Part shown: piece after piece, positions 4,550 through 28,498 of the stretch
How positions within the stretch are numbered: position 1 is the stretch's first letter
Layout: every line of letters starts with the position of its first letter
Assembly: GCF_007994135.1 (NCBI RefSeq)
Contig: NZ_VLKF01000001.1
Coordinates: 1,488,001-1,552,000, forward strand
Origin: Modestobacter roseus
Lineage (GTDB): Bacteria > Actinomycetota > Actinomycetes > Mycobacteriales > Geodermatophilaceae
Length of the DNA stretch: 64,000 bases
Direction: 5' to 3'
The notes under the pieces: generated by a model
Told to the model about the DNA's origin: nothing
The model's input: the letters and a program-made list of their open reading frames with translations, nothing else
Databases searched by the model: none
Position numbers and translations under genes: made by a program

Positions 4550-5341
4550 GTGAACCGCAGCACCGACGGCGCGCCCATCCCGGTCGCGACGGGCGTGGAC
4601 GACGCCCGGCTGGCCGGCCTGCGCCGCTGGAACCTGGCGCTCACCGTGCTGCACGCCGCCCAGGCCATCGCGGTGCTGCTGCTCGCCAGCAGCTTCGCGA
4701 TCACCGTGACGTCGTCCTTCCCGGCCGGCCCGCCCGGCACGGCGGTCCCGGCGCCGGAACCGCTGGTCGACGTCGGCGTGGGAGCGGCGATCGCGGTCTT
4801 CCTCGGGCTGGCGGCTCTCGACCACCTGCTGACGGGCGCGGTGCTGCGCCGGCGGTACGAGGAGGACCTGCGCGGGGGGATCAACCGCTTCCGCTGGCTG
4901 GAGTACTCGCTCAGCTCGACGGTCATGGTGCTGCTGATATGCGCCTACACCGGCATCACCGGGCTGAGCGCGCTGATCGGCATCGCCGGCGCCAACGTCG
5001 CGATGATCCTCTTCGGCTGGTTGCAGGAGCAGGCCAACCCGCCCGGCCGCGCACGGACGACGATGCTGCCCTTCTGGTTCGGCTGCGTGGCCGGGGTCGC
5101 GCCGTGGGTGGCGATCACCGCAACCATCGTCGGCGCGGAGCAGATCCCGGGCTTCGTCTACGGGATCTTCGTGTCGCTGTTCGTCTTCTTCGCGAGCTTC
5201 GCGGTCAACCAGTGGCTGCAGTACCGGGAGGTCGGCCCGTGGCGCAGCTACGCGTTCGGCGAGCAGGCCTACCTCGTGCTGAGCCTGGTCGCCAAGAGCG
5301 CGCTCGCCTGGCAGGTGTTCGCCGGCTCGCTGGCCACCTGA
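4550..5341 (+). CDS. Heliorhodopsin
   Basis: 263 residues with seven predicted membrane helices. Family features: His35 and His92 (equivalent to His23 and His80 of the reference heliorhodopsin 48C12), the counterion Glu118 inside RFRWLEYSLSSTVM, and the retinal Schiff-base lysine Lys249 in SLVAKSALAWQVFAG. Heliorhodopsins sit inverted in the membrane compared with type-1 rhodopsins and are not known as classical ion pumps; a light-sensing or enzyme-regulating role is proposed for the family. The GTG at 4550 has AGGAGG 5 nt upstream. No retinal-producing dioxygenase is in the window, so retinal must come from elsewhere. It lies tail to tail with an NDQ rhodopsin. Confidence 0.93.
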   Translation: MNRSTDGAPIPVATGVDDARLAGLRRWNLALTVLHAAQAIAVLLLASSFAITVTSSFPAGPPGTAVPAPEPLVDVGVGAAIAVFLGLAALDHLLTGAVLRRRYEEDLRGGINRFRWLEYSLSSTVMVLLICAYTGITGLSALIGIAGANVAMILFGWLQEQANPPGRARTTMLPFWFGCVAGVAPWVAITATIVGAEQIPGFVYGIFVSLFVFFASFAVNQWLQYREVGPWRSYAFGEQAYLVLSLVAKSALAWQVFAGSLAT

Positions 5342-5383
5342 CCCGGTGCCGCCGGCCGCACCGCGGCGGCCGACGGCACCGGG
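5342..5383. terminator. Bidirectional terminator between the two rhodopsins
   Basis: A 17-bp inverted repeat with one mismatch (arms 5342-5358 and 5367-5383, loop of 8 nt) starts directly after the heliorhodopsin stop codon and ends 9 nt before the stop of the convergent NDQ rhodopsin. It has no T-tract, as is common in high-GC actinobacteria. Confidence 0.75.
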
Positions 5384-5392
5384 TCCGCCGGC

Positions 5393-6232
5393 TCAGGCGG
5401 CCCGGCCGGGGGCCGCGACGTCGGTGATGCCCCCGCGGGGCTGGGTGACGTCGGCCGCGAGCGCCTCCTCGTGGTGCTCGTGCTTGCTGACCTTCTGGGC
5501 GATGACCGCCAGCAGGATCCCGTAGACGACCTTGGAGACGATGTCGGCCACGGTGTAGGTGATCTGCCGGGCGACCACGCCGTCGGCGGAGTCCCAGATC
5601 GCCGGCATGAGGTAAGCGCCGGGGTAGAGCATCCAGGAGCCCAGCAGCAGCCACCAGACCGCCTTGACCAGCGGACGGACCTCCGCGGGCATGCGGCCTA
5701 CGTTGCCGTACACGGTGCGGTACACCAGCGCCAGGATCACCAGGAAGAAGACCGTGCTGATGGAGCCCCAGACCCAGAACGGCGCACTGCGCTCCACCTC
5801 GTGGAACTGGCCGACGTAGCCGGTGTAGATCATCCCGAGCCCGGCGACGGTGAAGACGATCCAGCCGCGGCGGAACGCCGCACCGGTCACCCCGAACACG
5901 ATCAGCATCTGCAGCAGCAGCACCGGGACGTCGATCGACCAGTTCATGTACCGGTAGCCGTTGGAGAACAGCGTGCCGGCCTGGACGAAGGCCTCGCCGT
6001 CCCAGCGGAAGGCGCTGTCCCAGCGCTGGGAGATGACCAGCAGCTCCAGGAACGCCGACAGCATGACGACGCCGGACAGGGTGGAGGACAGCCGGTACCG
6101 GGGCAGCGAGTTCCGGCTGGTCAGGACGAAGTACACCAGCCCGGCGGCCATCGCGGCGTAGCCGAGGGTGAACACGTGGGACACGATCGTGTACTGGGAG
6201 AAGTCGTAGGTGAAGGTGTTCTCGACGTTCAC
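5393..6232 (-). CDS. NDQ-type rhodopsin (light-driven sodium-pump class)
   Basis: 279 residues, seven membrane helices. Helix C reads RYMNWSIDVPVLLLQ, placing Asn97, Asp101 and Gln108 at the three diagnostic positions, the NDQ motif of Na+-pumping rhodopsins such as KR2. Other KR2-like segments: SHVFTLGYA (His19), YTGYVGQFHEV (Glu145), SWMLYPGAYLMP, and the retinal site ADIVSKVVYG (Asp230, Lys234). Expected role: outward Na+ (or H+) transport under light. The GTG at 6232 follows GGAGG by 4 nt. Differences from KR2: Ser50 where KR2 has Asn61, Ala242 where KR2 has Gly263, Thr87 where KR2 has Asp102. The tail contains KHEHHEE. Assignment to the class is firm; ion choice is inferred. Confidence 0.93.
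   Translation of the reverse strand: MNVENTFTYDFSQYTIVSHVFTLGYAAMAAGLVYFVLTSRNSLPRYRLSSTLSGVVMLSAFLELLVISQRWDSAFRWDGEAFVQAGTLFSNGYRYMNWSIDVPVLLLQMLIVFGVTGAAFRRGWIVFTVAGLGMIYTGYVGQFHEVERSAPFWVWGSISTVFFLVILALVYRTVYGNVGRMPAEVRPLVKAVWWLLLGSWMLYPGAYLMPAIWDSADGVVARQITYTVADIVSKVVYGILLAVIAQKVSKHEHHEEALAADVTQPRGGITDVAAPGRAA

Positions 6233-10770: not shown

Positions 10771-10774
<4 letters not shown>
10340..10774 (-). CDS. Four-helix membrane protein, unknown function
   Basis: 144 residues with four predicted membrane segments (about residues 19-36, 55-72, 80-98 and 112-132), preceded by a short basic cytoplasmic start. I recognise no family. Its ATG overlaps the TGA of the upstream SDR gene (ATGA at 10771-10774), so it was translated coupled to that gene; since the SDR is now broken, expression may be affected. 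The WPGWQEFPV and VWQVFPFDVSDTWE loops are the most distinctive segments. Confidence 0.6.
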
Positions 10775-12249
<1,475 letters not shown>

Positions 12250-26656: not shown

Positions 26657-28498
26657 TCAGCCGACGTCGCCCAGCTGCGGAGCACTGTCGGTGGTCCCGG
26701 TGCCGGGCACCGGGTGCACCACGCCGGCGCTGCCGCCACCGCGCCGGTCGGACTCCGCAGCGGCGAGCAGCAGCCCACCGGGCAGGTACTCGATCCCGGT
26801 CGCCGCGCCGATCTCCGGGTTCTCGGTGAACGTGTGCCCCAGCGCCGCGAGCTCCTCCCCGTAGGCGGCGAGGAACGCCGGCTCCGCCTGGACCGCCGCG
26901 GTGTTGCGCTGGGTCGCGCGCGGGGCGGCGATCGCCTCGGCGAGGTCCATGTTCCGGTCGATCCGGTTGACCAGCGTCTGCAGCACGGTGGTGATGATCG
27001 TGCTGCCGCCCGGGGACCCCAGGGCCAGCACCGGCTCTCCGTCGTCCAGCACGATCGTCGGCGCCATGCTGCTGCGCGGCCGCTTGCCGGGGGCGGGCAG
27101 GTTCGGCTCGGGCACGGTCGGGTCGGCGGCGGCGAAGGTGAAGTCGGTGAGCTCGTTGTTCAGCAGGAAGCCGCGGCCGGGGACGGTGATCCCGCTGCCG
27201 CCGGTCTGCTCGATGGTCAGCGTGTAGCTGGCGATGTTCCCCGCCGCGTCCCCGACGGTGAGGTGCGTGGTGCTCGGCCCCTCGGCACCGCTCTCCCCCG
27301 CTCCGGCGTCCTCGGCGGGGCACGGGCCGTACTCGCCGTCGGGCACACCGGCCGGCACCGGCTTGGCCAGCGCGGCCGCCGGGTCGATGACGCAGGCCCG
27401 CTCGGCGGCGAACCCCGGGGACAGCAGCTCCGCCAGCGGCACCTGGCTGTAGGCCGGGTCGCCCACGTAGGTGTTGCGGTCGGCGAAGGCCAGCGCGCTC
27501 GCCTCGAGGTAGTGGTGCAGCACCGGGACGGCGGGCAGCGAGCCGAGCCGGAACAGGTCGAGGATCCCCAGCGCCTCCCCCACCGTCGACCCGCCGCTGG
27601 ACGGCGGCGCCATGCCGTAGACCTCCAGCCCCCGGTACTCCGCCCGGGTCGGCTCGCGCCGGGGGGCGTCGTAGCGCGCCAGGTCCTCCTCGGTCAGCAG
27701 CCCGGCCCGCACCGGCGCGACGCCGGCAGCCTCCGGTGGGTCCTGCGCCGTCCGGACGACGTCGGCGGCCAGCTCGCCGGTGTACAGCTCGTCGACCCCC
27801 TCGTCGGCCAGCAGTCGGTAGGTCTCCGCCAGGTCGGGGTTGCGGAACACCGAGCCGACCTCCGGGGGCGCGCCGCCGGGCAGGAAGAGGTCGGCCGACG
27901 CGGCGAACGTGGCGAACTTCTCCTGGTTCTCCGCGGTCTGCTGGCGGAAGGTCTCGTCGACGACGAAGCCGTCCTCGGCGAGCTCCGTCCCACCCCGCAG
28001 CGCGTCCGCCAGCGAGAGCGTGCCGAACTCCTCCAGCGCCCGGGCCCACGTCAGCGCGGTGCCGGGGGTGCCGACCGACAGCCCGCTGCGGACCGCCTCG
28101 GAGAACGGCAACGGGTCGCCGGCCTCGTCGAGGAACGCGTCGGCCCCCATCGCCAGCGGCGCGGTCTCCCGGCCGTCGATCGAGGTGACCGTGCGGCTGG
28201 CCGCGTCGTAGTAGAGGAAGAACCCGCCGCCGCCGATCCCGGCCGAGTAGGGCTCGGTGACACCCAGCGCGGCTGCTGCGGCGACCGCGGCGTCCGCGGC
28301 GTTGCCGCCCTCGGCGAGCACCTCCAGGCCGACCCGGGTCGCGTCGGGGTCGACCGTGGCGACGGCGCCGCCGGTGCCCACCGCCAGCGGCTGCCGGTCG
28401 GGCACCGGGTCCGCGACCGCGGGGCCGGCGGGGGCGCCGACGACCAGGCCGGCGGTGAGGCCGGTGAGGGCCAGGACGGTGACGCGTCGACGTGGCAC
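26657..28498 (-). CDS. ggt: Gamma-glutamyltransferase
   Basis: 613 residues, secreted by a signal peptide (RRRVTVLALTGLTAGLVVGA, cleaved after AVA). Family blocks: GGNAADAAVAAAAALGVTEP, the SAGIGGGGFFLYYD segment, and the autocleavage/nucleophile Thr in PSTTHLTVGDAAGNIAS, then PRSSMAPTIV and ALGSPGGSTIITTV. It cleaves or transfers gamma-glutamyl groups of glutathione-like compounds outside the cell after self-processing into two subunits. The GTG at 28498 follows GAGGAG. It is 140 nt downstream of the phospholipase D gene on the same strand and may be read through from the long operon. Confidence 0.92.
   Translation of the reverse strand: MPRRRVTVLALTGLTAGLVVGAPAGPAVADPVPDRQPLAVGTGGAVATVDPDATRVGLEVLAEGGNAADAAVAAAAALGVTEPYSAGIGGGGFFLYYDAASRTVTSIDGRETAPLAMGADAFLDEAGDPLPFSEAVRSGLSVGTPGTALTWARALEEFGTLSLADALRGGTELAEDGFVVDETFRQQTAENQEKFATFAASADLFLPGGAPPEVGSVFRNPDLAETYRLLADEGVDELYTGELAADVVRTAQDPPEAAGVAPVRAGLLTEEDLARYDAPRREPTRAEYRGLEVYGMAPPSSGGSTVGEALGILDLFRLGSLPAVPVLHHYLEASALAFADRNTYVGDPAYSQVPLAELLSPGFAAERACVIDPAAALAKPVPAGVPDGEYGPCPAEDAGAGESGAEGPSTTHLTVGDAAGNIASYTLTIEQTGGSGITVPGRGFLLNNELTDFTFAAADPTVPEPNLPAPGKRPRSSMAPTIVLDDGEPVLALGSPGGSTIITTVLQTLVNRIDRNMDLAEAIAAPRATQRNTAAVQAEPAFLAAYGEELAALGHTFTENPEIGAATGIEYLPGGLLLAAAESDRRGGGSAGVVHPVPGTGTTDSAPQLGDVG

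What the first reader, a model, noticed from the sequence alone, without database searches (positions are those of the whole stretch)
4550..6232. Heliorhodopsin and NDQ sodium-pump rhodopsin tail to tail
Seen directly: a heliorhodopsin with its His/His/Glu/Lys set and an NDQ-motif rhodopsin with a KR2-like core are neighbours, convergent around one 17-bp hairpin. Known: NDQ rhodopsins are described mainly from marine bacteroidetes and a few other groups; heliorhodopsins sit inverted in the membrane and have no settled function. Inference: an actinobacterium combining both may couple light sensing with a sodium motive force, and the convergent 3' ends allow antisense interference between them. 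No retinal-forming dioxygenase is in the window.
Basis: partly seen in the sequence, partly recalled or inferred. Interest (0 to 1): 0.88.

Follow-up and report, generated by a model that had tools for sequence, protein, structure and literature searches.

The report
Two rhodopsins without a retinal-making gene
A bacterium of the genus Modestobacter carries genes for a light-driven sodium pump and a second light-absorbing protein end to end, but the gene that makes their shared pigment, which follows the pump gene in most of its relatives, is missing here, so the pigment must come from elsewhere or from an unknown enzyme.

Summary
In detail: a heliorhodopsin (HeR, 4550-5341 +) and an NDQ rhodopsin (NaR, 5393-6232 -) lie tail to tail, 51 bp apart, around a strong hairpin. 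The known active-site residues are intact. The NaR has glutamate at KR2 L74, so it is ErNaR-like (Subgroup 2), not KR2-like. The host is a Modestobacter. Six other Modestobacter also have HeR and NaR convergent on one contig, 4.9-12.5 kb apart; Verrucosispora sioxanthis has a separate NaR-HeR pair. What sets this genome apart is a loss. In 7 of 9 Geodermatophilaceae NaR loci the retinal-forming gene blh follows NaR; in an eighth only decayed pieces remain (another blh exists elsewhere); here blh is gone, and neither the Blh nor the RPE65 family matches anywhere in the 99.8% complete genome, although carotenoid genes up to a lycopene cyclase are present. Both opsins look constrained (branch dN/dS 0.17-0.34). 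Best reading: a sodium pump and light sensor that depend on foreign retinal or on an unknown retinal-forming enzyme; recent loss of function is not excluded. The hairpin looks like an ordinary terminator. Each part is of a known kind; the island and the loss are the new points.

The parts
4550..5341 (+). heliorhodopsin gene, 263 aa, GTG start
   Evidence: PF18761 332 bits, NF038020 279 bits, retinal Lys249 and H35/H92/E118 kept, dN/dS on this branch 0.17-0.24
5393..6232 (-). NDQ rhodopsin gene, predicted light-driven outward Na+ pump of Subgroup 2 (E63), 279 aa, GTG start
   Evidence: PF01036 123 bits, PDB relatives 8jh0, 8qle (ErNaR), 4xtl (KR2), residues, dN/dS on this branch 0.21-0.34
5340..5385 (.). 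hairpin between the two stop codons, probably a two-way terminator; begins inside the HeR stop codon
   Evidence: control of 48 convergent gaps
5383..5392 (-). about 10 nt after the NaR stop that still align with the NaR-blh spacer of relatives; possible scar at the edge of the loss (short, inference)
   Evidence: junction sequences; blastn alignments with four relatives run to 5383

Best explanation
This is the remnant of a Modestobacter rhodopsin island. In relatives the order is HeR -> (two-component system, ABC transporter genes, usually a gamma-glutamyltranspeptidase) <- blh <- NaR. In the window's genome what lay between the HeR stop and the NaR-blh spacer, blh included, is no longer there, and the two genes now end on one shared terminator-like hairpin. 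The NaR is a Subgroup 2 (ErNaR-like) NDQ rhodopsin and should export Na+ in light over a wide pH range. The HeR should be a slow, non-pumping light sensor. Both need retinal. With no Blh or RPE65-family gene but carotenoid genes up to a lycopene cyclase, the cell either takes up retinal made by neighbours or makes it by an enzyme not yet known, as reported for Aurantimicrobium minutum. Shown here: the genes, residues, synteny, absence of the two oxygenase families, purifying selection. Inferred: deletion as the event, ion and direction, sensor role, source of retinal.
For: blh is the next gene after NaR on the same strand in 7 of 9 Geodermatophilaceae NDQ loci; in 6 of these 7 an in-frame GTG stands 15-16 nt after the NaR stop. 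The two exceptions are G102 (decayed blh pieces after NaR, best 87% over 141 nt; another blh beside its DTE rhodopsin) and the window. B. capsensis, just outside the group of nine rows that holds the window in the NaR tree (midpoint root), also has NaR-blh. PF15461 rings in 16 of 22 family genomes but not in G000; PF03055 rings in 2 of 18 and in 2 controls, not in G000. G000 has crtE-like, crtI and crtB genes and two lycopene cyclase domains. Omega of the G000 NaR branch 0.21-0.34 in 12 combinations, highest upper bootstrap limit 0.68, not different from sisters. The window NaR departs from no column at least 90% conserved in the other 28 actinobacterial NaR. A neighbour gene (fam8, 84-87% identical) lies on the same side of HeR, in the same orientation, in G000 and four relatives, though 11 kb off in G000.
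Against: The G000 HeR does not fall in the clade of the five other Modestobacter HeRs (93/92; its own place unresolved), so HeR may have come separately. A ggt 77% identical to the island's lies about 20 kb away in the window, which points to rearrangement rather than one clean deletion. Most flank genes differ from those of relatives. No expression, retinal or ion-flux data. An omega well below 1 cannot date the loss: it may lie late on the branch. Whether the missing ABC and two-component genes sit elsewhere in G000 was not searched genome-wide.
Confidence: 0.68

Rival explanations
1. The strain makes its own retinal by an unknown carotenoid-cleaving enzyme, so the loss of blh had no cost and the locus is fully self-sufficient.
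For: A. minutum, also an actinobacterium without blh or diox1, holds endogenous retinal and pumps protons without added retinal (PMC7734400, abstract and passages). G000 keeps carotenoid genes with two lycopene cyclase domains, and both opsins look constrained.
Against: No candidate enzyme found; only two oxygenase families were searched. Rhodoluna lacicola without blh needed added retinal (as told in PMC7734400).
Confidence: 0.3
2. The NaR has lost its job since blh went and is decaying, kept only by recency of the loss.
For: blh gone; HeR is broken in the assemblies of two family members (frameshift in G086, fragment in G006), so opsins in this family are lost at times. The G000 NaR branch has more dN than its sisters (0.036-0.049 against 0.009-0.023), but also more dS.
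Against: No stop, no frameshift, known active-site residues kept; omega 0.21-0.34, no bootstrap upper limit above 0.68.
Confidence: 0.15
3. HeR was brought next to NaR by a rearrangement or transfer of its own, which replaced blh; the likeness to the other Modestobacter arrangement is coincidence.
For: The HeR tree leaves the G000 HeR outside the other Modestobacter, unresolved; flanks mostly unshared; a ggt lies elsewhere in the window.
Against: Same convergent orientation as in relatives and one shared flank gene, 84-87% identical, on the same side of HeR; all 7 NDQ-bearing Modestobacter have a linked HeR.
Confidence: 0.25
4. HeR and NaR work together as one light unit (sensor plus pump), so that selection keeps them linked.
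For: HeR in 7 of 9 NDQ-bearing against 7 of 103 other family genomes; an HeR of another clade directly downstream of NaR in V. sioxanthis; HeR in 14 of 28 further NDQ genomes against 26 of 397 in the order sample.
Against: The 7 Modestobacter are one lineage, so the Fisher p of 3e-6 is not a fair probability. Both NDQ-bearing Blastococcus-group genomes lack HeR. Only 1 of 28 further NDQ loci has HeR within the held flank. The order sample is no fair background for the 15 Acidimicrobiia, whose own HeR rate was not measured.
Confidence: 0.2
5. The 3' ends of the two genes regulate each other by antisense read-through.
For: Convergent genes 51 bp apart.
Against: A -52 to -56 kcal/mol hairpin sits between the stops, of a kind seen at other convergent ends here; no transcript data.
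Confidence: 0.04

Closest known systems
ErNaR and Subgroup 2 of the NDQ sodium-pumping rhodopsins (PMC11006869, abstract and passages)
   Same: R-N-D-Q-D-K residues and the extra Schiff-base glutamate (E63 = ErNaR E64 = KR2 L74); KR2 D102 of the inter-protomer Na+ site is not kept (T87)
   Different: from an actinobacterium, not from Erythrobacter; no function measured; blh lost beside it
KR2 (NDQ Subgroup 1)
   Same: same core residues
   Different: has leucine where the window has the extra glutamate; different inter-protomer site
48C12-type heliorhodopsin
   Same: PF18761/NF038020; H23, H80, E107 and K241 kept
   Different: stands alone, convergent to a pump gene, not in an operon with glutamine synthetase (PMC9529153, search listing), photolyase (PMC9769723, search listing) or ABC transporter genes (PMC11109279, passages)
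blh-less rhodopsin bearers: Aurantimicrobium minutum, Rhodoluna/Aquiluna (Luna-1), Saccharibacteria
   Same: opsin genes without blh; many Luna-1 genomes also combine HeR with a type-1 pump (PMC12422013 passages; PMC9296517 passages; PMC7734400)
   Different: there the pumps are proton pumps; here an NDQ rhodopsin, with close relatives that still have blh directly behind the same gene
Geodermatophilaceae rhodopsins of Tarlachkov et al. 2020 (doi 10.1093/bioinformatics/btz840)
   Same: same family; I recall, without a call, that NDQ rhodopsins and heliorhodopsins are described there
   Different: paper not held, only its title seen in reference lists; whether it shows linkage or blh loss I cannot tell

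Membership tests
NDQ light-driven sodium pumps | R109, N112, D116, Q123, D251 and Schiff-base lysine of KR2 | tested here: met
   R94, N97, D101, Q108, D230, K234
NDQ light-driven sodium pumps | light-driven outward Na+ transport | not testable with these tools
   needs expression and flux assay
NDQ Subgroup 2 (ErNaR-like) | glutamate at KR2 position L74 | tested here: met
   E63 in the window; E in all 28 other actinobacterial NaR of the alignment; criterion from PMC11006869
NDQ Subgroup 2 (ErNaR-like) | no KR2-type inter-protomer Na+ site (KR2 D102) | tested here: met
   T87 at that place by sequence; the column is variable, some Acidimicrobiia and cyanobacteria have D; no structure made
Heliorhodopsin | profile match over curated cut-off | tested here: met
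   PF18761 332 bits (cut-off 26.7), NF038020 279 bits (cut-off 100)
Heliorhodopsin | retinal lysine, Glu counterion and the two histidines | tested here: met
   K249, E118, H35, H92
Heliorhodopsin | inverted membrane orientation (N-terminus inside) | tested here: inconclusive
   N-terminal stretch has 4 K+R (and 3 D+E) against 0 K+R in that of the NaR, which fits, but my simple plot found only 6 of 7 helices
Retinal prototroph with NaR-blh gene pair (as in relatives) | blh directly downstream of NaR, or any Blh/RPE65 family gene | tested here: not met
   no PF15461, no PF03055 in G000; the gap is only 51 bp
Opsin bearer without known retinal gene (A. minutum / R. lacicola kind) | opsin present, blh and diox1 (RPE65) families absent, opsin works with retinal | tested here: inconclusive
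   first two met; function not testable

The most novel reading that the evidence does not exclude
In Actinomycetota the NDQ sodium pump and heliorhodopsin form a recurring light unit that was brought together at least twice (Modestobacter; Verrucosispora, with a third rhodopsin and blh), and in the window's lineage that unit has been cut free from its own retinal synthesis: both opsins are kept by selection while living on retinal from neighbours or on an undescribed retinal-forming enzyme.
Probability: 0.2. Interest if true: 0.72.

Novelty: new member of a known kind. Interest (0 to 1): 0.45.

Why it matters
Opsins without a known retinal gene are a standing puzzle: are they dead, fed by neighbours, or served by an unknown enzyme? 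Here is a matched case: one Modestobacter genome without blh, and relatives with a 90% identical pump and blh directly behind it, several of them isolates held in the VKM collection (PMC10190537). If the window's strain is in culture, comparing retinal content and light-driven Na+ export between them would separate the three answers. It also places Subgroup 2 sodium pumps, of which ErNaR works even at acid pH, in actinobacteria whose relatives come from desert salt crusts, where sodium and light stress coincide.

Tried and rejected
Antisense regulation by the convergent 3' ends: set aside as unsupported; strong hairpins occur at other convergent ends too. Decayed pump: not favoured, because codons and active site look constrained, though a late loss cannot be excluded. 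Retinal from an RPE65-type enzyme: none in G000. Lack of a lycopene cyclase as the reason: rejected; G000 has two TIGR03462 domains beside crtB, crtI and a crtE-like gene, while six other Modestobacter (five with NaR-blh, and G099) have a strong CrtY-type match instead; whether the G000 pair cyclises C40 or C50 carotenoids is open. Remains of blh near the locus: tblastn of 12 Blh proteins on the fetched G000 stretches gave nothing better than E 0.06. HeR of six Acidimicrobiia loci (L104-L109) could not be pulled out by my script and are absent from the HeR tree. G086 (HeR frameshifted) was left out of the HeR dN/dS table and tree, and the G006 fragment was not called as a gene, so it is in neither. 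Structure prediction was not used: sequence settles both families.

Full report
What is there. The window (G000:C1:1488001-1552000; genome of 4.52 Mb in 2 contigs, 99.83% complete) holds two intact opsin genes tail to tail. The heliorhodopsin runs from a GTG at 4550 to 5341 on +, the NDQ rhodopsin from a GTG at 6232 to 5393 on -, with 51 bp between the stops. Pfam and NCBIfam place the first as heliorhodopsin far over cut-off. The second has the general bacteriorhodopsin profile and no NCBIfam match; its best solved relatives include the sodium pumps ErNaR (8qle) and KR2 (4xtl), with chloride pumps further down. It is the only PF01036 match at E <= 0.001 in the genome.

Active sites. Against KR2, the pump keeps R109, N112, D116, Q123, S70, N106, E160, R243, D251 and K255; it departs from none of the columns at least 90% conserved among the 28 other actinobacterial NaR. 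Eleven sites differ from what all six Geodermatophilaceae NaR used there share, among them Y144H next to E145 and T232V two residues before the retinal lysine. At KR2 L74 the window has E63. That residue divides the NDQ clade in PMC11006869 (abstract and passages read): Subgroup 2, shown there for ErNaR to pump Na+ over a wide pH range with high selectivity. All 28 other actinobacterial and all 5 cyanobacterial NaR of my alignment have E; the Phycisphaerales one has I. The heliorhodopsin keeps the counterparts of 48C12 H23, H80, E107 and K241.

The host and its relatives. Of 112 family genomes, 14 have a heliorhodopsin match (one only a fragment, one in two frames) and 52 a PF01036 rhodopsin, in 58 matches. 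I read the motif of all 58 (57, the 58th, the NDQ copy of G100): 9 NDQ, 48 DTE, 1 NTQ. All 7 Modestobacter have HeR on the same contig, convergent with NaR. Stop-to-stop distances are 51 bp in the window and 4.9, 7.8, 7.9, 8.8, 9.0 and 12.5 kb in the others. HeR occurs in 7 of 9 NDQ genomes against 7 of 103 others (Fisher p 3e-6), but the seven are one lineage, so this counts as roughly one event.

What lies between them elsewhere. All six other Modestobacter have, between HeR and NaR, a histidine kinase with a LuxR-type regulator and an ABC ATPase with an adjoining protein of 261-269 aa without Pfam match; five of six have a gamma-glutamyltranspeptidase there (in G090 it lies beyond HeR), and five of six have blh there (PF15461, TIGR03753). 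In 7 of 9 NDQ loci blh is the next gene after NaR on the same strand; in 6 of these 7 an in-frame GTG stands 15-16 nt after the NaR stop, though a GGAGG motif precedes it in only two. In G102 only decayed pieces of blh follow NaR, while an intact blh sits beside its second, DTE rhodopsin. In the window's genome nothing is left but perhaps ten nucleotides of the spacer.

No known retinal-forming gene. PF15461 finds nothing in G000, yet rings in 16 of 22 family genomes given to the same search. PF03055 finds nothing in G000, rings in 2 of 18 and in two controls. Carotenoid genes are there: two lycopene cyclase domains and crtB at C1:873835-875281, then crtI and a crtE-like prenyl synthase. So the substrate is likely and the cleaving enzyme is not known. 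A gap in the assembly is unlikely (2 contigs) but cannot be excluded by me. The state is not unique among NDQ bearers at large: of 28 further NDQ genomes, 9 have PF15461 (6 of 6 Micromonosporaceae, 1 of 1 Pseudokineococcus, 1 of 15 Acidimicrobiia, 1 of 6 others). The 15 Acidimicrobiia are all metagenome bins by title, their completeness not shown, and cyanobacteria have their own enzyme, diox1 (PMC7734400).

Selection. Pairwise dN/dS of the window NaR is 0.20-0.27, that of other pairs 0.10-0.28. Three-taxon branch estimates for the window NaR are 0.21-0.34 (twelve combinations, highest upper bootstrap limit 0.68); every interval for the difference from the sister branch includes zero. For HeR they are 0.17-0.24; four of five intervals include zero, and in the fifth the window branch is lower than its sister. 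This fits proteins kept in use over much of the branch. The loss of blh cannot be placed on that branch, so a recent loss followed by little decay is still possible.

Is the arrangement older than the window? The NaR tree (midpoint root) groups the window with Modestobacter, G021 and Pseudokineococcus (96/85, unresolved inside), with B. capsensis just outside (99/98); B. capsensis and G021 also have NaR-blh. This makes NaR-blh the older state. The HeR tree does not place the window HeR with the other five Modestobacter (their clade 93/92). One flank gene (fam8, an NAD-dependent epimerase-like protein, 84-87% identical) is shared on the same side of HeR with four relatives, though 11 kb off here, and a ggt-like gene lies about 20 kb off in the window. 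I take loss within an old island, with rearrangement, as most likely, and mark it as inference.

A second, separate pairing. In Verrucosispora sioxanthis an ATG of HeR stands 106 nt after the NaR stop on the same strand; divergent from NaR stand a DTA-motif rhodopsin and blh. Its HeR is in another clade (100/100). All five other Micromonosporaceae NDQ loci also have blh on the opposite strand within 2 kb upstream of NaR; a homologue of the DTA rhodopsin was found in four of those five. Among 28 further NDQ genomes 14 have HeR (3 of 6 Micromonosporaceae, 11 of 15 Acidimicrobiia, one of these a fragment; 0 of 7 others), but only this one within the flank held, which contig ends often cut short. 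The order sample has 26 of 397; the fair background for Acidimicrobiia was not measured.

Hairpin. The stem is strong, but 48 convergent gaps of 10-150 nt in the stretches compared have a median of -35.9 kcal/mol and four at -52 or lower; the window's ranks second. I read it as a two-way terminator without a U-run, usual at such GC content (recalled). The consensus scan found no U-tailed terminator there.

Literature. In searches of the held open library no listed title or abstract start describes HeR-NDQ linkage in Modestobacter or blh loss there. The key earlier paper (Tarlachkov et al. 2020) is not held, so I do not claim that the co-occurrence is new. PMC10190537 was read whole: it reports rhodopsin genes in the VKM strains without naming types. 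PMC7734400 (abstract, introduction, start of methods, passages), PMC12422013 (passages) and PMC9296517 (passages) set the frame for opsins without blh; PMC8612252 and PMC11109279 (passages) for HeR contexts; PMC9728251 (passages) for NDQ rhodopsins in general.

Verdict. Real and correctly read at the gene level; more interesting for what is missing than for what is adjacent.

Noticed in passing
L153:7141-11288 (Verrucosispora sioxanthis): cluster of three opsins and blh: HeR downstream of NaR, divergent DTA-motif rhodopsin followed by blh
   Followed up: partly
L069:14916-17847, L082, L083, L084, L085: MerR/B12-binding regulator (LitR/CarH-like, label recalled) - DTE rhodopsin - blh cluster in several Geodermatophilaceae (Pfam read for L069 only, the others by clustering)
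   Followed up: partly
G086:C52:21764-22476 and G006:C2:55333-55455: heliorhodopsin split over two frames in M. caceresii (draft) and reduced to a C-terminal fragment in a genome of the Blastococcus group
   Followed up: no
L099:8924-9600: lycopene cyclase swap inside Modestobacter: the window, G102 and G092 have two TIGR03462 domains, six others a strong CrtY-type (PF05834) match
   Followed up: partly
G062:C1:3512104-3512784: NTQ-motif rhodopsin (putative chloride pump) in a Geodermatophilaceae genome that also has HeR and a DTE rhodopsin
   Followed up: no
window 10771-11384 (-): short-chain dehydrogenase gene appears split over two frames; possible pseudogene or sequencing error
   Followed up: no
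(Acidimicrobiia bins): 11 of 15 NDQ-bearing Acidimicrobiia bins have HeR (one a fragment) but only 1 of 15 has Blh; a larger possible case of pumps without a known retinal gene
   Followed up: partly
window 26657-28498 (-): gamma-glutamyltranspeptidase 77% identical to the one in the relatives' rhodopsin island, here about 20 kb away from the opsins
   Followed up: no
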